Assembly: GCF_964355755.1 (NCBI RefSeq)
Contig: NC_092673.1
Coordinates: forward strand, 8,003,001-8,067,000
Direction: 5' to 3'
DNA length: 64,000 nt
Source of the DNA: Antedon mediterranea
Taxonomy: Eukaryota; Echinodermata; Crinoidea; Comatulida; Antedonidae
Position 1 is the first letter of the stretch; the number at the start of each line of letters is the position of its first letter. A program made the position numbers and the translations under genes. The notes beneath the pieces are model-generated. The model searched no databases. It saw nothing but the letters and a program-made list of their open reading frames with translations, and was not told the DNA's origin. Shown here one piece after another: positions 1 to 56,580 of this stretch.

Positions 1-735
1 GATTCCAATATGTCATTCATAAATTGTAATTCAGATAATTCTTGGCAATCGAAGGTAGAAGGCAAGTATATTGCTACACCACCTCCACGTTGATCGCTAG
101 GTCTACTGTTTGTTAACAAATTATAGCCAGGGAGTGAGTAAAGGTTATGTGAAGAATCAGATAGCCAAGTCTCTGTGAGACCAACAATTGTAGGAGCAGA
201 ATCAATATGTGATAAAAAAGAATTATAGAGGTGGTCAAAATTTGTATTCATGCTACGGATATTGAAGTGTTCTGGAAGACCGCCGAATCGCAAGTTGTAA
301 GATCTTCAGTGCCGTTCGAGCTTATTCCGACAGTTGTTTTTGCATCGTTGACAACTTCAATTTTTCATTTCCAACATCAGCCGAAACATCTTTAATGTTC
401 GCATCTAGCAGTTTTATTTTTTAAATCCGATATTGAAGCACATGCGAATTCAATTGATTTTTCAAACTCAGACTGCTTGGTTTCAACATGGAGGTATATA
501 ATATATACCTCCATGGTTTCAAGCAGGGAGATTTCAAGTGTGTCCATCCTCGTACAAGCATGGTTTGTTGGTTACGCAAGACCGAATCCAGCTGGTCACG
601 AATACCGCGCAGATCTGTTGTTAGTCCTACAAGTTCACGCCTCAATAGCTCTGCGTCGGTTTCGGCGACAGCGGCTTCCAGTTTTGGTGGCTCAGGTGAT
701 GTTGGGGCTAGGACTATTTCCTTCTTTTTTGGCAT
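1..735 (-). mobile_element. LINE fragment, 5' part (ORF1-like start plus endonuclease N-terminus)
   Basis: Read on the minus strand, 735 to about 421 starts with a basic peptide (MPKKKEIVLAP...) followed by a short acidic, probably coiled-coil segment. From about 270 to 1 the frame reads like the start of an APE-type endonuclease of a CR1/Jockey-like LINE: a NIRSMN motif, then GLTETWLSD, then RGGGVAIYL. The two parts are not in one frame because a palindrome is inserted at 487-515 and other damage is present. The copy continues beyond the left window edge. No reverse transcriptase is visible here. Confidence 0.7.
480..522. mobile_element. Ultrashort palindromic insertion 1 (29 bp) with 7-bp target duplication
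   Basis: A 29-bp near-perfect palindrome at 487-515 has 13-bp arms starting CATGGAGGTATAT and a 3-nt centre. It is flanked on both sides, without gap, by GTTTCAA (480-486 and 516-522). It interrupts the LINE reading frame, so it is an insertion. Its outer 10 bp are identical to those of insertion 2 at 4222-4242. Confidence 0.75.
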
Positions 736-854
736 TCGGACTTAAAATTTCACCGTGTAATTAAGATGTGGTATACTAAAAATGAAATACTCACAGTTCA
801 AATATACTTAGACTTGATGATAGTTAGATATTAGTAACGTTTTAGAGGATATTT

Positions 855-966
855 ATATATATATAAACACAACAGGCAAAGAACATTAATTCTAAACCGC
901 CCGGTGATATACTGAAATTTAATTAATTAATTTGAAACGATAAAGATGAGGAAATCTGTGAGAATG
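855..966. mobile_element. SINE fragment (tail half, no tRNA part)
   Basis: About 110 bp (ACACAACAGGCAAAGAACAT... to ...GAGGAAATCTGTGAGAATG) match 32382-32480 almost base for base. There the same sequence is joined to a tRNA-like domain. Here it stops at the point where the tRNA-like part would begin and is followed by a 20-bp palindrome of TA-rich sequence (963-982). Confidence 0.65.
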
Positions 967-1074
967 TTTATATATATAAACATAGATCAGCATGCCATAA
1001 ACAATTTCAATTTAAAATGTATATTAATATTAATAAAACCAACAGTGAACTCATGGTTCAATCACCACTTTACA

Positions 1075-1206
1075 GGAGGGAACTTTGTGTGACAAAAAAT
1101 GAGATGTGCCCATTATACACACGATGATGTCATATCACTAGGGGCCTACCATATTTGGACACATCACATCTTTTTTATCAAAGAAGTTTGATAGTGTAGA
1201 CAGAAC
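1075..1206. mobile_element. MITE of the AGCTCTGTCTACAC family, copy 1
   Basis: The right end (TTTGATAGTGTAGACAGAACT) and internal words such as ATGATGTCATAT match the better copy at 52772-52911 and the copy at 26974-27093. The left inverted repeat is degenerate. It ends 34 bp before the start codon of gene A and is followed by TTATAAAATA, so it may contribute to the promoter or 5' UTR of that gene. Confidence 0.6.
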
Positions 1207-1240
1207 TTATAAAATATCTGATTTATTTTCCTATAGAACA

Positions 1241-4200
1241 ATGGCTGCCACAATGAAGATGATTGTTTTCATATTAGTAATACAAAGCCTGGTGCTATTT
1301 GTTTTCAGTACGTATGTGTTTCCTATCTGCCGTATTATTATTGTGATACAAAAATTTTCAATTTAAAAAGACAAATTTTGTCAATAACGGTATAATATTC
1401 CTCTACTACATATTCAATTTCCGTCTCTTTAGGCCTATTTACCAAGTGTCCAAATCAATGTTCCGAATATGAGACTTTTAAATGCAGACTTACATTATAT
1501 ATTTTTAATGCTAGGCCTATTATAAACTAAATTGTATGTTATATATTTTATATAGCCAAATTTTTTTGTAAATAATTTATTTTATCATAATTTAATTTAT
1601 CTTTTGTTTTGTTTTTTATTGGAACTTACGAGGGCCCCTGAATATCAACTCGCATTAATTTGTCGAACGGGAAAGGTTACGGTACTCTAAATAAAGTTGA
1701 AATACATCAACAATATAAGGAGTAAGCGTTGCATGCGCATTCTAATTTAGATGAATAAATACGCCTAATGGAAACCGGCTCGATAGCGCTCTATTATCCA
1801 AATTATGCGGGAAAACAAAAAGCTAAATAAATGTGTTTTATTTACTCAGCTTAGGCCTACATACAATTTACGATTTCGAGAAAAGATTTTCTTATTTTGT
1901 TTCTAAACATTATTTTTATTTTACAGGTGACAAGGTGTATTTTTCTGTAAAAGCACCTCCTGGTATTCATTCCATAGACCTAGGTTTGTTTTTTGCGTCC
2001 TTTCAGGAATTGGAATTAGGCCTACAGTCTAGTATCAACCAGCCTATTGGCCTAGATCTCAATCCATATACATCAACACTGTATTGGTCAGATGGTATTA
2101 AACATACCATCGACAGCTATTCAATTGAAACTGGTGAACAATCAGTTTTGGTTTCAACTGGAGATGGATGTAAGTGAATGTTTTCCTTTCTTTTAATGAT
2201 TTGTATATGCCTTTATATGTGCAACATAAACTATACGAGATCTTAAAATAAAAGTGAGGTACTATTATGTTGTTCTTTTACCTCTTATCTTCACAGTATT
2301 TTAGACTTAAGAAGACTATATTTACAGTATCAAGTTTTTAAACATACTACTAGCAGTTTGTGTTATAGCATCCACTTAAGCGTGGTTCCTACTAGCGACG
2401 CAACACAAGAAGGACGTAACGCAACGCAAGTGAATTGACCAATCACAAGCGATGGCTTATTCGCTTGTTATTGCTGTTACTGTCTATAACTTCGCTTGTC
2501 ATTGGTTAAAACGCTTGCGTTGCGTTTACGTCCTTGCGTTACGTTCTAGTGGGAACCAAGCTTAAGACTAAATTGTTATGTCATTCTGGCAATCGTTCTT
2601 TGTAGTGTTTGAGTGTATTGAATTTGAGTTTGAGTGTTTATTTCATCGTAATTGATCCTGACGATATTTCCTCGTAATCAACAATTCTTTAAAACTGTTT
2701 AGCTAATGTTTTTTTATTCTTCAAAACTTATTGATTCATCTTCATAATGTTAATTCTAGAAATATTGTTGAGAAATTTACAGTATACTTACAACTATATA
2801 ATATAACATAACATTTTTACATGGTATAATTCAAGTATAAATAACCAACACATCCTAGTATTTCCTGCTTAAATACACATGTACCTATGTACACATGTAC
2901 CTATGTACACATGTACCTATGTACACATGTACCTATGTACACATGTACCTATGTACACACGTACCTATGTACACACGTACCTATGTACACACGTACCTAT
3001 GTACACACGTACCTATGTACACACGTACCTATGTACACACGTACCTATGTACACACGTACCTATGTACACACGTACCTATGTACACACGTACCTATGTAC
3101 ACACGTACCTATGTACACACGTACCTATGTACACACGTACCTATGTACACACGTACTATGTACACACGTACCTATGTACACACGTACCTATTAGACTTGT
3201 CCCAAGTCTGTATTATCTTTTTTTTTTATTTATTTGTTTTTATTTCGACCGCGATTTTTGTCTGAAAATACAGACTTGTGATTGTGAAACACGTATAGAA
3301 ATCGATTTGCAGACCGCAAACATACGATAAGAATGACGTAGGTTATCATACCGTATTTGGCTATATGAGGCGGGCGGTATGTAAATATGGATTTCGAATC
3401 AACCAATGATCATTTTGTTTCAAAATGAAAGAGATCGAGTACGTAGGCCTACCAGTGCTTAAAGGGGGATTCTGGGTTTAAAATTGCTTTTAAATATCGT
3501 TTATTTATTAAATAAAAAATATTATAACAATATAGACATTTCAGAATGAAGAAGTAATAACGAGAAATTAAAAAAATTAAATTTCATATACATTTTAGGG
3601 TAAATTCATGGAAAGTCTGTTTTTTAGCAGCTTAGGGAAGCTCATTAATATTCATGAGATATTCACAAAATCACGTCACCAGTGGATTCCAAACTCGCGA
3701 CGTCATGTACGTTGTGTTTGTCAACTAATTTACATCTCTCTCTCCCCTGTCAAACGACGACCACCATTGTGATTATTGTGAAATACATTTTTTTGTAGAT
3801 TTTCTAAGCTAGGCCTAAAGTGTAATAATAACAGTAGTAGCATATATTTATTTGTCATTTAATGAAATACAAAATTTAGTACAGATACGGAGTCATAAAT
3901 TATACTATTTTTATACCTCTATAGTACAGATCGTATTATCGGCTTCACGTACAATACTACTCTAGGCCTAGCCTAATAATAATATGGGCGAGAGCCATTC
4001 TGACTAGGGATTCCATGCCACGATGGCTACGTTAAAACAATGGGGCCCATGGGCCTAGCTAGCCTACTACTAGACGATTGGCCCATAAATAACAAAACCC
4101 ATCCTATCAACCAAACTCCTAAACAATCTAAACCTAAAACATTCTACAAAATCGGCTGTAAATATTGAAGCAAAACAAGGTCCGATCGCCGTCCACACGT

Positions 4201-7200
4201 ATGGTGTCCCGATCGTCTAAGCATGGAGGTATTACCTCCATGGTCTAAGTAGGCCTAAAATAAATAGGTTTAGTTTACTCTCCAAAAAAGCGGATACTCA
4301 TGCATCAAGCAAGTAGACCAGGTAGTAGGAAGGAGACCTAGCCGATCCGGCCCAGTTAAAAATTGAGCTAGCTAGTGTAGTAGACCCTATGCGAATTGAT
4401 ACTACCACTGCCAGGCCTTTTACTATAGGCTGCACTACACAAATAATCCAACTCTCTCATTCGAGCTATATTGTCTATACCACCGGTAGGTCGAGTCGAC
4501 CTTCAATCAAATACTGTACATCGTTCATGTTGTGATTATAGACGGGGTATACTCGACCCGACCAGTTTGGTATTGTTGTATCTGCTTATCACGTGACGAT
4601 GCCAGGCATGGGCAGCAGAGAGAGCACGTGTATCGTCGTCTCGCTCGATCCTCAGCAGGAATGTACAGTATACGTTACGCTTCATTGATTTTGATTTTTC
4701 CCTAAGTCGGTGCGAAAATCGGCAAACGTAAAGTGCAAACATATCTAATTTTTCACTGTTTTGATGAATTTTCATAAAAAATTGACTTTATAAATGGGAA
4801 GACCGACTAAAATTACATCAGATAAGTATAATTTTACAAAAGTAATTGATATGGTTTATGATAACGAGTCGTCGGAAGATGGACCATTTCACGAATTTCC
4901 TATTTTGTAACCACAGTGTGATTTTGCCGTAGCTGCACTTGTAATCTGGCCTGATTTCACAGCCTTCGTTCTGCTTCACTGGACGCTTATATAAATTGAA
5001 ACTTTTACCGTTCAAGAGACAAACAAATATATTTTACATTTTTTACTATTCATTTAAAACCCGGAACCCACCTTTAATGTACGATCGAGACTGTTGAAAT
5101 ATAAAATAGTAATGCCAAGTTGTTTTGTTTATTAATTGTTTATTCCTTGGCCTAGGCCTCTTTCGTAGGTCCTACTCAACTCGCACGTATGACCTGCCAA
5201 ATAAAACGCCAATGAAATCAGAAGTAGGCCTACATAACCACCGGCACACAACAGGGCTACATCACCACACAGAACAGGACAGGGTCTCGGTGGGAATTAA
5301 ATCAAAATTATCTCCGCGTAATAAATGATCCATTCAATGTTTGATTTGCGGAGAAGCTAGCCTATCATATATCAAGACGAGTTTTCATGTTTCAAAGATC
5401 CCATCAAATGTTTACCAGACTACTAGGCATATAAAATAATTTCTAGCCTTCAGAACTTTCATAAATGTACCCAAGTACACATTGTCTAAACGTAACATAG
5501 CCCATGTGCATCATCTTAGTTAGACTTGCCCCAAGTCTGTATTGTTTTATTTGTTTTTATTTCGACCGCGATTTTTGTCTGAAAATACAGACTTGTGAAA
5601 CACGTATATACGGTGCAGCGTTGCCAGCGATAAAATTTAAATTATGCCGTATCCTGTCTCAAATAATGCCAGATTGGGAAAAATAATGCCAGATCCCCAA
5701 AATGTGGCCCTAAACAGCGCCACCAACGGTTGTATGTCTAATAAACGTTTGTAAAACCCCAACTGACACAAAATAGGGCCTAAATTGTATCCCTATGTCG
5801 TTCAAAAATTGTATTTTTAGTTTTGTGAGTAATAACTAATAATTCTAAAAATATCTGGGGTGAAATGGTAATTGCAAATGACACAAACACGAACCCACGA
5901 ACCCTTCTCCCCCCCCCCCACCCTCCAAAAAAAACCTGTTACAGCCATGGAAATTTAGAATTTTTGAGCTGAAATATGAGAGCTGCTCGATCTTTGCACT
6001 TAATTTCAAATATGAAAGGATCTTAGCCCACCATAATTAGAAAATTGCAATTATAATTTAAAATAGGAAATAAAAATATATATTAAGTGTCTCCAGGACG
6101 ATCAGCCCCACCATGGTTGATAAGAAAATTTTGAAAAATGCTGATGGCCGGAAATGCCACTTAATTTAAAATATGAAATAATAATATATTTATTAGTGTC
6201 TCCAGGATCTTAGCCCACCATAGTTCGAAAATGGCAATTATCATTGAAAATAGGAAATCAAAATATATATTAAGTGTCTCCAGGACCTCAGCTCCACCAT
6301 GGCTAGTGCTGAGGTAAGACAATTTGGGAAAATAGAGCTGCTCAATGGGCGGAAATGGCACTTAATTTCAAATATGAAATAAAAATATATTTATTAGTAC
6401 CTCCAGGATCTTAGCCCATCATAGTTTTGAAAATGGCAATTATAATTTAAAATAGGAAATAAAAATATATTAAGTGTCTCCATGACCTCAGCCCCAGCAT
6501 GGTTGGGGCTGAAGTAAAAAAAAAATGGAAAAATAGAGCTGCTCGATGGGCGGAAATGGCACTTAATTTTAAATAAAAATTACCTCGCCCACATGGTCAC
6601 TACTGGGGCTGAGAGGTGAAGAACATTTGGAAAAATAGGGTTGCTACGACGATGCAAATGGAACATAATTTGAAATATGGAAAAAAAATTCTGCTTGAAG
6701 AAATTCTTTTTAAAATTAGAGCTTCTAATAGTTACTGCAAATTGCCATTTCAAGGGTTGGGGTAGGGGTGCGGCCACTTATAATTATGAACTGAAACAAC
6801 AAAACCCCTTTCATAATGTTTTCGTTCAATTGTCTCTATATCTGGGGATCCAATAACCTGCATGGTCTCTGAAATAGAGCAACATAATTGGCCAATAGCT
6901 AGCCTCTTCCGGATTTGTTGTGCTGCCTATATCGCACACACGGTAGTTTTCGAGCAGCCTTCCTATCCGAAGAGTCTATTTAAGTCCGAAACAAAAGGAT
7001 GGAAGAACTATTGTACGGAAAACCCGAACAGATCTGTTTTCTACGATATGATATTGTGTAAGGTGATATGTATTAAATTGCATGATTAAACAAAATATTT
7101 TATTTTTGTTCTGTGGTATATTATTATTATTATTATTATTGGTTGTTCAAAAAACACAAAATTATGCCAGATTATGCTAAAAACGGCTAAATAATGCCGC

Positions 7201-10200
7201 GGCATTATGCCAGATGCCGTGGGCCTCTAAATAATGCCAAAAAGCATAATAATGCCAGAAATGGCAACTATGATACGGTGGCCTATAAGTGTCACGGCAA
7301 CTTTCAAAAAATATCACGGCAATTTTTTCAAAAAAAGCCACGGCAATTTGAAAAAGGCCACGGCAATTTGAAAAAAGCCACGGCAATTTGAAAAAAGCCA
7401 CGGCAATTTGAAAAAAGCCACGGCAATTTGAAAAAAGCCACGGCAATTTGAAAAAAGCCACGGCAAATTAAAAATAAAACATCACGGCAAATTAAAAATA
7501 AAACATCGCGGCAATTTAACAAAAATACCAGGGCAACTTAAAAATGAAACACCACGGCAAATTAGTATTGAAGCACCACGGCAAATTAATAGTGAAACAC
7601 CACGGCAAATTACAGAATGCCACGGCGGAAGTGAGTTACCACGGCGGAAGTGAAACCTTTGGAATCTTCGATTTTTTCTGAGGTAAGTAATTATTTGTGC
7701 ATTGATGTAAATATTATATTAATTTATTTAACTGCAGCAGTTTACGTGTTTATTGCACTCTTCTTGAACTTTCTAGGCCGGGCTAGACCATAGGCCTTAT
7801 TACAAGGTAGGCCTAGGCCCTATAACATTCTACAATGTTTTAATATATTTACAGTAATCTGTTTTTTATATAACAAGTTGTTTTTACAGTAGACCTAGCT
7901 ACTACTGTAGGCCTAAGGCCTAGGGCTAGTAGTAGGCATAGCTAGGCCTAGTGCAATAAACACGTAAATGCTGCAGTTAAATATAATAAATTAATATAAT
8001 AATATTTACTTCAATGCACAAATAATTACTTACCTCAGAAAAAATCGAAGATTCCAAAGGTTTCACTTCCGCCGTGGTAACTCACTTCCGCCGTGGCATT
8101 CTGTAATTTGCCGTGGTGTTTCATTACTAATTTGCCGTGGTGTTTCAATACTAATTTGCCGTGGTGTTTCATTTTTAAGTTGCCGTGGTATTTTTGTTAA
8201 ATTGCCGCGATGTTTTATTTTTAATTTGCCGTGATGTTTTATTTTTAATTTGCCGTGGCTTTTTTCAAATTGCCGTAGCTTTTTTTGAAAGTTGCCGTGA
8301 TATTTTTTGAAAGTTGCCGTGACACTTATAGGCCACCGAAATCGATTTGCAGACCGCAAACATCCGATAAGAATGACGTAGGTTATCATACCGTATTTGG
8401 CTATATGGGGCGGGCGGTATGTAAATATGGATTTCGAATCAACCAATGATCATTTTGTTTCAAAATTAAAAAGATCGAGTAGGCCTACGTACAGTGCTGA
8501 ATGTACGATCGAGACTGTTGAAATATGAAATCCTGTTGCCAAGTTGTTTTGTTTATTAATTGTTTAGTCCTTAGCCTAGGCCTCCTTCGTAGGTCCTACT
8601 CAACTCGCACGTATGACCTGCCAAATAAAACGCCAATAAGGTAGGCCTACATAATACCACCACCGGCACACAACAGGATTCACACACAACAGACAGGGGT
8701 GTGTCGAAAGCGAAGACATCGAAAGCGAAGATCGAAGACCGAAGACCTCGAAAGCGAAGACCCTACGAAATGGTAGTGTGCACAAAATCTGACCAAAATC
8801 ATACAAAATCGTGATAACACCTTGAATTTACAGATTCTAAAAAAAGATTTCGATTTTAATCGTTATGTTATCAAAAAACATGACTTTATCTATGAACAAG
8901 CTCACGCGTTTTCGCCAATGGAGTTAAATGTGATATGGTTTACGAACAAACACATCGCGCTATTTGCAAGGCGACGGACGCACAAGAAGGACACGCACAC
9001 TGTAGCATTGAATTGAATGCAATATTAATTATAATATTACTACGGTTCCGATAACTTTATGTCACACGTCGCCTACAATTTAAAACCATAGCCAATTGTA
9101 TAGAAAAGTATAGAAATAAACTACAAGTAAATTGTAAGAAGTAAAGGATTGCGATAGGCCTATTTAGGCTAATTTTAGAGCATATATAAAAAGTGTCCGT
9201 ATCATAGATTTTACACTTGTTTTTAAACATGTTATACGCGTGAATAGAACTTAGAGATCATTTTTCATTTTTTTTTTTGCATTTAAATATGTTGATATAT
9301 GTTTATTATCTATAATTAATCGGGAGACTGTTGAATAGTCGTCTCATCCACAAGCCTGTGAGATAGAAGGTTGGGGGTTAGAGTGGTTAAGCCCAATAAA
9401 AATTCACCATCATTTTTTATTTTTATTTATAGAGAGTATCTCTTTTAGTATTTACCACGGGCAATGCTTGAAAACAAAAGTCAGTTTCTTTTTTTTTACC
9501 GTTTGATGATGAGGACACTTGTGGTTGGCGGAACTGGAACTTCATTAAGCTTGGTTCCCACTAGAACGTAACGCAAGGACGTAAACGCAACGCAAGCGTT
9601 TTAACCAATGACAAGCGAAGTTATAGACAGTTAGCAATCACAAGCGAATAAGCCATCGCTTGTGATTGGTGGTCAATTCACTTGCGTTGCGTTACGTCCT
9701 TGCGTTGCGTTGCTAGTGGGAACCACGCTTTAAACATGTATTTTGACAGTGTCGGTAAACGTAATACCGATATATAAACACCCGTTTTAAAAATAATTAA
9801 ACGTGAACACACTATCGTCACTAATCACATTGCAACCGTAACAAAATCGGCAACTTTTTAAGCGAATATTTTTTTATTTCAATCTTTGTTTTGAATGGCT
9901 TTTGTGAACTTTGACATAATGGCATAATTAAATGTTATTCGGAATTATGGAAGCCGTGAAACAGATGATGTGTCGCAGGAAACGATCGATTTATAACCAA
10001 AATTTATAGAACGCTGATGCCTATTATCGTTCGTTCTTTTTAGCTTTTTGTCATATCATAATTTGAATATATTCTGTCAAATTTGGCCCGGGAAAAGTGC
10101 GCCTTCAGAACAAACTTGCGTGTCATTACAAGTGGGAACCGACGACGGAAGCACGGTCCGTAGACGTGTTCAACACTTTTGCTTTACGTTCGTCATAATG

Positions 10201-13200
10201 ATTCTCGATCGTAAGAGGGGATGCAAAATAGATAGAAGAGTATTTTCTTATGTTGCTCGCGTCAATACGATACAGTACATAGCGGCAGGATGTTTTTGTT
10301 TAGTGGTTCGTTGGTTAATGAAATATTTATTTTACTTTTTATATTTTTCTTCTTTACATAGTACTGTCGCTTCACCAACCACACTAACCGATACTGATAA
10401 TATCATTTGTCCATTATGAATACATTAGAAAAACATTTTTAAACTGGTGAATAATTAAATCAGCAATCTGTAGTATAGGCCTACAATGGGGAAAATGTAA
10501 AAGTTTAAAATACTGTACAGCATGACTAAAGGAAAATAAATATCTTATTGTATTTAATTATACATTTAGACAACAGGCAAATATTTCGTAGGGTCTTCAC
10601 TTTCGAGGTCTTCGGTCTTCGATCTTTGCTTTCGAGGTCTTCGCTTTCGACACACCCCAACAGACAGGGCTACACCACTACACAGAACAGGACAGGGTCT
10701 TGGTGGGAATTAAATCAAATTATCTCCGCGTAATATTAAATCAGGGAGATGTAAATTACATCTCCCTGATTAAATGATCCATATAAAATCCTTTCTAGCC
10801 TTCAGAAACTTTCATCAATGTACCCAAGTACACATTGTCTAAACGTAACATAGCGCATGCGTACCATCTTATTTGTTGAGTCTTTGAAATTCTGAAATAT
10901 GAATATTAAAACGGTGTACGAGTGAGTAGCCAATCGCATGCAGCTGAAACTAGTCAACCGGATAATCTATGCACCAAGAATTCTTGGTGTCAAACCACGT
11001 GACTTTTGCGTGTTTCCCCAGGCGGAGTATCCAAACTCAAGTAATACACGTATGAAACGCCATATGTGCAAAAATATTTATATTTTTACTAATATTAAGA
11101 AAAAACTCCGTCTGGAGTCCAGACTACATCTTAGTTGTTGAGTCTTTGAAATTCTGAAATATGAATATTTACACATTGTACGAGTGAGTAGCCAATCGCA
11201 TGCAGCTGAAACTAGTCAACCGGATAATCGTATGCACCAAGAATTCTTGGTGTCAAACCACGTGACTTGTGCGTGTTTCCCCAGACGGAGTATCCAAAAT
11301 CAAGTAGTATACGTATGAAACGTCATCTGTGCCAAAATATTTATCTTTTAACTAATATTAAGACAAAACTCCGTCTGGAACCCAGACTAACGTACCTATG
11401 TACACACGTACCTATGTACACACGTACCTATGTACACACGTACCTATGTACACACGTACCCAGGGCCGTAGCCAGGATTTGTCAAGGGGGGGGTTGGACA
11501 TTGGGTCACCCCCCCCCCCCCCCCACTCACCCCCACCCCCCCCCCCCCCCCCTGGGGTGGGGCCTAAGGCGAAGCGAATTTTGTTAAATGACACCCCTAG
11601 ATGGCCGGAAAAGACACTCTAATGCAGCGATCGTACTTGGACTCGTGGACTATTTAAACGATAACATTGTTGCCGTATGTTAGATGCGCGTGCTCTGTGC
11701 GGAACCGCCGATTGTTTGAACATTTACTCGGTATTTTATTTTGCGTTCAAGTTCAATGCGAACGTACGTCTAGGAGAAGCCCCGAAAAAAGCACACTGGG
11801 TGAAGGCAAATGCAATTCTTATTATAGCTCTATCTATAATATTTATTTACAGCAATTTGTTGAGGAAATTAATTATGCCAATGGTGATATTGATACATTT
11901 GAGTACGTATCGGCTGGTGGTCTAGAAAAAAATAATCGGACGCCATAATGTGAACTACAGTACATGATACCATAGATATTATAGTGTAAAATATTAATAT
12001 TCACTATAATCCTCTATGATGCATTACACTTCATAGCCACACATAAATACTGATGTATGTCGGAAGGCTATATACTTTATGCATGCTGTCTGACTGCCAG
12101 TGATCTAAACAATTGGTACGCAGTTGTCTGGCGGTGTCCTTTGTACGAATCGTTCGTGCCCCAGCTCGCTGTGAGACGCGTCAATATCATGTTACATGCA
12201 GGGACCAAACATTTATTTTTCAGGTTAAAATCGGCAATTCATTTGCAACTCTTAGAAATTTACAGACGCGTATCGCTCGAAGTACGCTCATACAGGGAAG
12301 AAGGTACTGTATGAGTTATTTCGAACGAGTTTACGAATTTTTCAATTTACGAACAACTTTTTGTACTGTGGGGCACGTATTTGGACGATTTTCGGAGATG
12401 AGGGTGAGGTATTGGGCATGTCGGGGATGGGGGTTCGCAGTCGGTTAAGGGGGGTTCGCTGTAAAGGGGGGGGGGGGGAGGGGGTTCGCCCGAACCATAA
12501 CCCCCCCCCCCCCCTGGCTACGGGCCTGCGTACCTATGTACACACGTACCTATGTACACACGTACCTATGTACACACGTACCTATGTACACACGTACCTA
12601 TGTACACACGTACCTATGTACACACGTACCTATGTACACACGTACCTATGTACACACGTACCTATGTACACACGTACCTATGTACACACGTACCTATGTA
12701 CACACGTACCTATGTACACACGTACCTATGTACACACGTACCTATGTACACACGTACCTATGTACACACGTACCTATGTACACATGTACCTAATCAAAAT
12801 GTACAGCAGATATAATTATCAGGGAAATCTAAAGCTCATAAATATTCATACCCCACCCTTGTAATTCCATAAATTAATCACTGAGGTCTGACTGTGTATA
12901 GAGAAATTGTAAGTGTGGGCTACTAAAATTGATACATCTATAATATGATATCTATGTGTTGATTGTTACATATAACTATTGTTTTTATAGCTAACGTTAC
13001 TGATATAGACGTTGATCCATTTGGAGGTAAACTTTACTGGAGTGACAAAGTTTTAAACACCATTGAATGTATTAACTTAGATGGTACTGGGAGAACAGTG
13101 CTATTTCAACTCTCCAAGGATGATCCAACGACCATTGCATTCAATTCGGAAACTCAGTACGTAACGTGTTTTTGAAAACATTGTGACGGCTTATTAAATC

Positions 13201-54569: not shown

Positions 54570-56580
54570 TCAAATTAAGAAATGAAATTATAAATATGTA
54601 TATTTTAGTAACTGTAAATAACAAATGTCACACTAATGCTATTTGCCATTTGGTAATAATATTCAGAAATGGTTTGAGAATTAATACTTTATCAGACTTT
54701 AAGTATACTGTTACTGGTGCAAATTTTCCACTAAGTTTATAGTATGGATTCAGGTTTTCTTTTAAGAATTAAACTGTGCTGTAGGTAGGGTTTTCTTGGT
54801 TTTTGGCAATTAATCTGAGGGAGCTTAATATTACTGCATAGAGGTATTCTAGTATTGTAACTGTAAATTGTTGTAGATGAATGTTATATTAAAATGTATT
54901 ATAATACAATTTTATATTATACAAGAGTAAGCGCTGTATGTTCAGTATCCATTTCTTTGAATTATATATATATTTATTTTTAAAAGAGAAGAAAATGTCT
55001 CCCAATATAGAAAAAACAAAACACTAATTAAAACAGATATACTTTACTAAAATATTATTTAAAAAAATGAATAATTTTAAAATCTAAAATGAAAATTATC
55101 GAAAGTGCTATTAAAGGTTGAATCACATAAATATAGTATCAACTGTAATTGAATCCGAGCATGTAATATAGTATGAAAATGAATGATTTCATTCAACAAA
55201 ATTAGCAGTAAACTTTATTTGAATTTCAACATCTACATAGTTGAGGAAGCTGCGCTTGGGATATTTAAAGGCAACAATACTGACTTTTTTAACACTACCT
55301 AGTTGAAAGTCTCTATTGTTAGCAAGTTTTACCAAGCTTCCTCGCCATTGATTTACAAGTCAAACGTTAAAATGGCACAATTGATAAACCATGTAGAATT
55401 CCTCCATGGATAAACTTCCTTGTATTTAAATTCATAGTACCAATTACAATTACCATTGTGTGCAAACAATGAAGTACGACCAAACTAATATTGTATAATG
55501 CTATTCATTGTGCACAAGTAACTGTACAACAAAAATCTTTTTGTATAAGGTATTGTGTGCACAAAAGTGAACTGGCTGTGTATGTAGTTCATCATGCATT
55601 CACTGTGTGTGAGTAAGTACAGTAGTACAGTCGATACAGTAACTAATTCAGTTAGATTATCATTATTGATGTACGGCATATGTATAGATTTTAAGATTTG
55701 CCTTTTATAACTATACGGTATAACACCATCGATAGGAACTCAATCATGAATTGAGAAGTATTTCACGTACAATATCAGGCAGTTCATTACGTGAATGAGG
55801 CATACCCAACTCAATTATGGTAAGTTGGCCATACTTTTCATCACTTGTTTTGGCATTAAACGGAATCAAAGTTGTATGGTTAGATTTTGCATAGATACAA
55901 GGCTGAACAAAAGAATTGTTTTAATGAAAAACGATAGTTGAAGAAACATTATTTATTTACATTATCTTGTTTTTTTATTATAAGACAAATAATACTTGAA
56001 TTTTAACATTTTGTGTTGGTTAAAAAATGTTGTAAACTGTGTATGATTTTCATAGAACCTACCATTTTTTATGCTTAAAATTAAAGCGTTCCAATGGGTT
56101 GTTTTTAACGAAAAGTATGCGTAATAATAGAACAATAGTCAATGAACGAATCATCGCCATTTAAAGTTTTTTCTTTTTATCTTTCTCCGTTTATTATTGC
56201 AGATAAAATTATATTTTATTATAAAATTAATACATACTTTAGAATCTCAGTAATATCTGCAGCACATGTTAATTAAAAAACACAAATTGTCAATCTAAAT
56301 GTAAACTATATAAACTTTATGTACTGCTTGAAATAGATAAAAATTATAATTAAATGGAATGAAATTAGGTGGTTAAACCGAAAGTATGCACAAACTTTCT
56401 ATACCATTGTGTAAGATGTTAGATGTTACACGCGGTTACCGAATTTATTATCTATTTATAATCTATGATCAAGCTTGGTTCCTTTCAATTGTATTTCTAT
56501 TATAGTGCAACAAGTCCAAGCCTAAGTTCCGTATATTTATACTATACATATTTTCCATTTTCAGAAACGAAAATAAGAGA
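54570..56580. other. Intergenic, no gene seen
   Basis: AT-rich. A loose inverted pair (GAGGAAGCTGCGCTTGG at 55241 and CCAAGCTTCCTCG at 55332) suggests a small decayed element. Nothing else recognised. Confidence 0.5.

What the first reader, a model, noticed from the sequence alone, without database searches (positions are those of the whole stretch)
480..10775. A family of 21-29 bp palindromic insertions, each with an exact 7-bp target duplication
Three loci in 10 kb share one design: a palindrome with 10-13 bp perfect arms around 1-3 nt, ends CAKGGAGRT, and a gap-free 7-bp direct repeat on each side (GTTTCAA, GTCTAAG, ATTAAAT). All three duplications have T at position 2 and A at position 6, a symmetric preference. 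These elements would be only inverted termini with no interior, far shorter than ordinary MITEs. A cut-and-paste enzyme leaving 7-bp duplications is inferred; I know no eukaryotic superfamily this fits well (Dada elements give 6-7 bp).
Basis: partly seen in the sequence, partly recalled or inferred. Interest (0 to 1): 0.85.

Follow-up and report, generated by a model that had tools for sequence, protein, structure and literature searches.

The report
Palindromic scars left by excised P-elements
The tiny palindromes are repair scars left where cut-and-paste transposons of the P-element superfamily jumped out of the chromosome, and this animal genome carries more than a thousand of them, which records how the enzyme cuts and how the cell mends the break.

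Summary
Genome-wide the first kind occurs 760 times (reversed-pattern control 0), the second kind 163 times (control 0); about two thirds of sampled copies have an exact 7-bp duplication. They are not tiny mobile elements. A 6.3-kb P-superfamily transposon in the same genome has exactly these ends (32-bp inverted repeats), a 7-bp duplication and a P transposase. A sister family with about 50 intact ends gives the clean test. Its scars keep 18-19 bp of an end and never 20-22, while intact ends run on; in the first family the limit is 20 bp. That is how P transposase works: it cuts one strand about 17 nt inside each end, leaving two single-stranded inverted-repeat tails that are rejoined. Laboratory P excisions in Drosophila give the same palindromes between duplications. 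Sister copies of two window loci lack the insert and have a single target copy. The "unknown superfamily" reading therefore fails. What remains of interest is the scale of the scar archive, cut offsets of 18 and 20 nt, scars far outnumbering elements, and transposases with a zf-AD-like rather than a THAP N-terminus.

The parts
480..486 (.). target duplication GTTTCAA, left copy
   Evidence: six sister copies of the surrounding repeat have it once
487..515 (.). excision scar 1, 29 bp, CATGGAGGTATATAATATATACCTCCATG (family 1 ends plus short filler)
516..522 (.). target duplication GTTTCAA, right copy
517..538 (.). second, one-sided scar: TTTCAAG - CAGGGAGA - TTTCAAG (8 nt of a family 2 end between a 7-bp duplication), overlapping the right duplication of scar 1
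   Evidence: the sister copies lack it
4215..4221 (.). target duplication GTCTAAG, left copy
4222..4242 (.). excision scar 2, 21 bp, CATGGAGGTATTACCTCCATG (family 1 ends)
4243..4249 (.). target duplication GTCTAAG, right copy
10735..10741 (.). target duplication ATTAAAT, left copy
   Evidence: empty site with one copy at C6:14975660-14975880 (L111)
10742..10768 (.). excision scar 3, 27 bp, CAGGGAGATGTAAATTACATCTCCCTG (family 2 ends); the same scar occurs at the same place in other copies of the host repeat, so it was copied along with that repeat
10769..10775 (.). target duplication ATTAAAT, right copy
55383..55415 (.). probable further scar: GATAAAC - CATGTAGAATTCCTCCATG - GATAAAC (4 nt of one family 1 end, filler, 8 nt of the other)
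   Evidence: weaker, because shuffled sequence gives 0-3 partial matches of this looser type

Best explanation
The palindromes are excision footprints of P-superfamily DNA transposons that make 7-bp target duplications. The transposase cuts one strand at the element's edge and the other strand 18-20 nt inside the inverted repeat, so each chromosomal break end keeps the duplication plus a single-stranded tail of 18-20 nt of inverted repeat. The element leaves. The two tails, which are inverted copies of each other, are trimmed, paired at short microhomologies or joined directly, sometimes with short filler, and sealed. The product is [7 bp][up to 20 nt of left end][up to 20 nt of right end][7 bp], that is, a palindrome of about 18-40 bp. 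Shown here: family, duplications, ends, transposase, empty sites, length limit, microhomology. Inferred: the order of strand cuts, polymerase-theta-type joining, and that the transposases found are the ones that acted.
For: 1) Matching donor: a 6324-bp element at C11:13871856-13878179 (in L069) has 32-bp perfect inverted repeats CATGGAGGTATAAAAATAGAAGGAGAGAGCTC, 7-bp duplication GATACCG, and ORFs matching P transposase RNaseH_N (4.9e-24), GTP-binding insertion (8.2e-6) and RNaseH_C (1.2e-5). 2) Length limit: of 57 genome sites with >=19 nt of this end, 13 stop at 19, 32 at 20, 7 at 21, 0 at 22-31, and 5 are full 32-nt ends. Family 3 (CATGGAGTAAAGAATAAGAGGAG...): of 100 listed sites with >=18 nt, 30 stop at 18, 20 at 19, 0 at 20-22, and 50 run on as element ends; 10/10 intact elements tested have an exact 7-bp duplication and 17/20 scars do. 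3) Palindromes of 42-72 bp number 61, many of them compound, against 760 of 18-38 bp. 4) Microhomology at clean joints averages 1.70 nt against 0.77 for random joining; 4-nt TATA joints 7/33 against 1.9% expected. 5) Empty sites with one target copy for scars 1 and 3. 6) One-sided and filler-bearing products occur. 7) Drosophila P excision yields acccagac-CATGATGAAATAACATA/TATGTTATTTCATCATG-acccagac joints with the same product classes (PMC5466332 Table 1) and a 17-nt stagger (PMC7776569).
Against: The limit is 18-20 nt, not the 17 nt of Drosophila. Few intact family 1 ends (about 5-8) and no intact family 2 element were found, so the family 2 donor is inferred. Some copies (about a third of those sampled) lack an exact duplication; part of this is decay, nesting or rearrangement. 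Some scars are copied within larger repeats, so the number of independent excisions is below the copy number.
Confidence: 0.94

Rival explanations
1. The palindromes are themselves mobile: ultra-short non-autonomous elements made only of inverted termini, inserted in trans by a P transposase.
For: Exact 7-bp duplications and clean empty sites; hundreds of copies; some recurring identical palindromes.
Against: Interiors vary almost from copy to copy (lengths 18-38 in 50 unselected copies) instead of forming a few lineages; retained end length stops sharply at 18-20 nt although the inverted repeat continues; one-sided products exist; recurring identical copies examined lie within larger repeats or are the joints favoured by microhomology. 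From general knowledge P transposase needs more than 100 bp of each end.
Confidence: 0.03
2. They are extreme internal deletions of P elements made by interrupted gap repair from a template, the way KP-type elements arise, rather than joins of the original overhangs.
For: Such deletions are common in P elements (general knowledge); a few palindromes keep more than 21 nt, for example C2:35210478 and C4:35183704.
Against: Gap repair copies variable, usually longer, stretches; the observed limit at one position per family and the scarcity of 42-72 bp products do not fit. It may account for the few long exceptions.
Confidence: 0.05
3. Chance palindromes or a satellite-like hairpin repeat unrelated to transposition.
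For: The genome is AT-rich and rich in repeats.
Against: Reversed-pattern control 0 against 760 and 163; duplication matches 45 at shift 0 against 1 at shifts 1-5; empty sites.
Confidence: 0.005

Closest known systems
Drosophila P element excision products (P{wa} assay, PMC5466332; review PMC7776569)
   Same: Two copies of the target duplication around two truncated inverted-repeat ends, microhomology, blunt and filler classes, one-sided products; limit set by a long staggered cut; ends begin CATG.
   Different: 8-bp duplication and 17-nt stagger in Drosophila; here 7 bp and 18-20 nt. There induced in the laboratory, here a natural archive of more than a thousand.
Galileo (P superfamily, Drosophila; PMC4168063)
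   Same: 7-bp duplications with a palindromic GT...AC consensus (GTANTAC; here GTYNRAC); P transposase.
   Different: Long foldback-like inverted repeats and a THAP domain in Galileo; here 32-bp inverted repeats in families 1 and 4, and a zf-AD-like N-terminus in families 1 and 3.
Zebrafish Pdre2 / THAP9 (PMC10983969)
   Same: P-like elements in a non-insect animal, with internally deleted copies.
   Different: 13-bp inverted repeats and 8-bp duplications in zebrafish.
Dada elements
   Same: 6-7 bp duplications.
   Different: The transposase found here with the matching ends is P type; no Dada transposase was looked for.

Membership tests
P superfamily of DNA transposons (the source elements) | Transposase with P-type RNase H catalytic fold and GTP-binding insertion | tested here: met
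   PF21787, PF21788 and PF21789 in the family 1 element; PF21787 plus Tnp_P_element in family 3 and PF21787 plus PF21788 in family 4; sequence match to the solved Drosophila P transposase 6p5a at 1.5e-14 (family 4) and 1e-4 (family 3)
P superfamily of DNA transposons (the source elements) | Inverted repeats around the transposase gene, flanked by a 7- or 8-bp target duplication | tested here: met
   Family 1: 32 bp, 7-bp duplication; family 3: 10/10 exact 7-bp duplications including a 12.7-kb element holding the transposase ORF; family 4: 32 bp, 7 bp
P superfamily of DNA transposons (the source elements) | Palindromic GT...AC-type target preference | tested here: met
   GTYNRAC from 38 exact duplications
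P superfamily of DNA transposons (the source elements) | THAP DNA-binding domain at the N-terminus (usual in described members) | tested here: inconclusive
   No THAP hit in the ORFs scanned; a zf-AD-like zinc domain instead, below its curated cut-off (1.9e-5, 25.3 against 28 bits; 0.0012, 19.5 against 28). Further exons were not searched, so a THAP exon upstream is not excluded.
P-type excision footprints (the palindromes) | Both duplication copies kept, with truncated inverted-repeat ends between them | tested here: met
P-type excision footprints (the palindromes) | Retained end length limited by a staggered cut about 17 nt inside | tested here: met
   Sharp limit at 20 nt (family 1) and 18-19 nt (family 3); same kind of limit, offset 1-3 nt longer
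P-type excision footprints (the palindromes) | The same site seen both filled and as a scar | not tested
Miniature inverted-repeat elements (MITEs) | Copies share a common interior and descend from few master copies | tested here: not met
   50 unselected copies have 18 different lengths and mostly different interiors

The most novel reading that the evidence does not exclude
The stagger of P-superfamily transposases is not fixed at 17 nt but is a family trait (18 nt and 20 nt in two families of one genome, with 7-bp rather than 8-bp duplications), and in this animal excision is so often repaired by end joining that scars of family 1 outnumber recognisable intact ends by about a hundred to one.
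Probability: 0.5. Interest if true: 0.5.

Novelty: new member of a known kind. Interest (0 to 1): 0.42.

Why it matters
The palindromes amount to a natural experiment: more than a thousand germ-line repair products at a break of known shape, from several P families, readable from one assembly. They allow the cut offset, the target preference and the end-joining rules (microhomology, filler) to be measured outside Drosophila without any experiment. They also warn repeat annotators that very short palindromic 'insertions' with target duplications can be excision scars, which makes extinct or nearly extinct transposon families (such as family 2, for which no intact element was found) countable by what they left behind.

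Tried and rejected
Looking for same-site, different-scar series: the family 4 CCTACAT group and the family 1 GTTTGAC group are copies of one repeat whose interiors differ mostly by small changes, so they cannot separate independent excision from later mutation; not used as evidence. L112 (only the right half of scar 3 left at the same site) could be a second product or a later deletion. A 501-bp element at C4:13125127-13125627 looked like a miniature element but sits in a large inverted duplication with inverted, not direct, flanks. The ~80-95 bp of extra sequence in some paralogues of the scar 3 repeat is an older sub-type of that repeat, not an unexcised element. No published genome-wide scar survey for P elements was found in the paper searches; this is weak evidence, since the library is open-access only.

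Full report
OBSERVATION. The three palindromes are in the window exactly as described, with perfect 7-bp direct repeats on both sides. They are the only such structures in 64 kb apart from one (AT)n run. In the whole assembly (354 Mb, 18 contigs; the window is C4:8003001-8067000) the first type, CATGGAGGT-N0-20-ACCTCCATG, occurs 760 times against 0 for the reversed-pattern control. The second type, CAGGGAGAT-N0-30-ATCTCCCTG, occurs 163 times against 0. Thirty-eight of 55 distinct first-type loci have an exact 7-bp duplication and 5 more have one mismatch; displaced comparisons gave 1 match in all against 45 in register. For the second type 13 of 20 are exact and 4 more have one mismatch. The target consensus is GTYNRAC. 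So the pattern is far beyond chance and the duplications are real.

EMPTY SITES. Scar 1 lies in a repeat of which six sister copies lack the palindrome; five read CTTGGTTTCAAG, with one GTTTCAA, and the sixth has TTTGTTTCAAG. The comparison also shows that the window copy contains a second event: TTTCAAG-CAGGGAGA-TTTCAAG at 517-538, where only one end of a family 2 element was kept. Scar 3 has a matching empty site at C6:14975660-14975880 (99% identical, a single ATTAAAT) and the same scar in several other copies of its host repeat. That scar was therefore copied with the repeat and is not an independent event in the window.

THE SOURCE. A search for the P-transposase RNase H domain found 35 matches. 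One lies in a 6324-bp element with 32-bp perfect inverted repeats CATGGAGGTATAAAAATAGAAGGAGAGAGCTC and a 7-bp duplication GATACCG, the same ends as scars 1 and 2. Its ORFs match the three P-specific catalytic and GTP-binding Pfam domains. A second P family (family 3, CATGGAGTAAAGAATAAGAGGAG[AG]CACAAC) is still plentiful as elements of about 2.3 kb, with a 12.7-kb copy that holds a P transposase ORF; all 10 elements tested have exact 7-bp duplications. A third (family 4, CTGAGACAACAATCAA..., 32-bp inverted repeats, 7-bp duplication) has a 794-aa ORF that matches the solved Drosophila P transposase 6p5a at 1.5e-14; 82 palindromes with its ends exist, 9 of the 20 read out with an exact 7-bp duplication.

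THE DECIDING MEASUREMENT. If the palindromes were small elements or random internal deletions, the amount of end sequence retained would have no reason to stop at one place. It does stop. Family 1: among all 57 genome sites with at least 19 nt of the end, retained lengths are 19 (13), 20 (32), 21 (7, no more than the chance that the next base is A), nothing from 22 to 31, and 5 complete 32-nt ends. Three of the 19- and 20-nt sites (C4:13125127, C4:13125593, C5:20505418) look like ends of variant elements rather than scars; this does not change the limit. Family 3: among 100 listed sites with at least 18 nt, 30 stop at 18 and 20 at 19 (again about as many as chance A would give), nothing at 20-22, while 50 run on into element sequence. 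Palindromes of 42-72 bp are rare, 61 against 760, and many of those are compound. In Drosophila the P transposase cuts 17 nt inside the inverted repeat, which leaves long 3' tails (PMC7776569). Laboratory P excisions there give joints of exactly this design, acccagac-CATGATGAAATAACATA/TATGTTATTTCATCATG-acccagac, with microhomology, blunt, filler and one-sided classes (PMC5466332). The same classes are seen here: microhomology is enriched (mean 1.70 against 0.77 nt; TATA joints 7 of 33 against 1.9%), filler occurs and is sometimes a copy of the adjoining end, for example AATAAG-AATAAG in L170 and L177, and one-sided scars occur.

MECHANISM. Transposase cuts at the edge of the element on one strand and 18-20 nt inside on the other. 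The element leaves. Both chromosome ends carry the 7-bp duplication plus an inverted-repeat tail, and the tails are joined after trimming. The steps before joining are inferred from Drosophila biochemistry; the products are observed here. That the joining is of the polymerase-theta type is an inference from microhomology and templated filler.

WHAT IS NEW AND WHAT IS NOT. Excision footprints of P elements are known, and 7-bp duplications with a GT...AC consensus are known from Galileo (PMC4168063). Not found in the accessible literature: a natural, genome-wide archive of this size, stagger offsets of 18 and 20 nt in different families, and P transposases with a zf-AD-like N-terminal domain. 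The host species was not identified.

LIMITS. Counts are of exact matches to patterns that require 8-9 nt at both ends, so trimmed, one-sided or mutated scars are missed. Copies inside larger repeats inflate the number of events. The filled-versus-scar comparison at one site could not be run. The family 2 donor element was not found.

Noticed in passing
L069:3788-5554 (-) and L068:2795-4657 (+): P transposases of families 1 and 3 begin with a zf-AD-like zinc domain and show no THAP hit; the family 3 protein also has a weak RAG1 importin-binding-region match (0.0049) in the same stretch.
   Followed up: partly
window 517-538: One-sided excision scar of the second family, TTTCAAG-CAGGGAGA-TTTCAAG, directly beside scar 1: two different P families used the same spot.
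   Followed up: yes
window 55383-55415: Probable further scar, GATAAAC-CATGTAGAATTCCTCCATG-GATAAAC.
   Followed up: partly
G000:C2:11742667-11742721: A scar inside a scar: CATGGAGTAAAGAATTACTCCATG (family 3) between TATAAAT copies, within a family 1 palindrome.
   Followed up: no
L113 and L115 (C2:26078460-26078710, C6:26419540-26419780): Another scar type, CATGGAGGAAAATTTCCTCCATG between ATGTACC copies, in copies of the scar 3 repeat that lack scar 3.
   Followed up: no
window 7431-8285: Foldback structure: 287-nt arms, 98% complementary, 281 nt apart, containing tandem CCACGGCAATTTG-type units.
   Followed up: partly
window 2370-2570 and 9545-9735: Two copies in opposite orientation of an inverted-repeat element of about 200 bp with ends like AAGCGTGGTTCCCACTAG.
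   Followed up: no
window 2880-3195 and 11385-11460: Tandem repeats of a 14-bp unit ACACGTACCTATGT at two places.
   Followed up: no
e.g. G000:C1:1873394-1873438, C2:4894885-4894929: A 45-bp family 2 palindrome-like sequence in about 25 identical or nearly identical copies, probably carried within a larger repeat.
   Followed up: no
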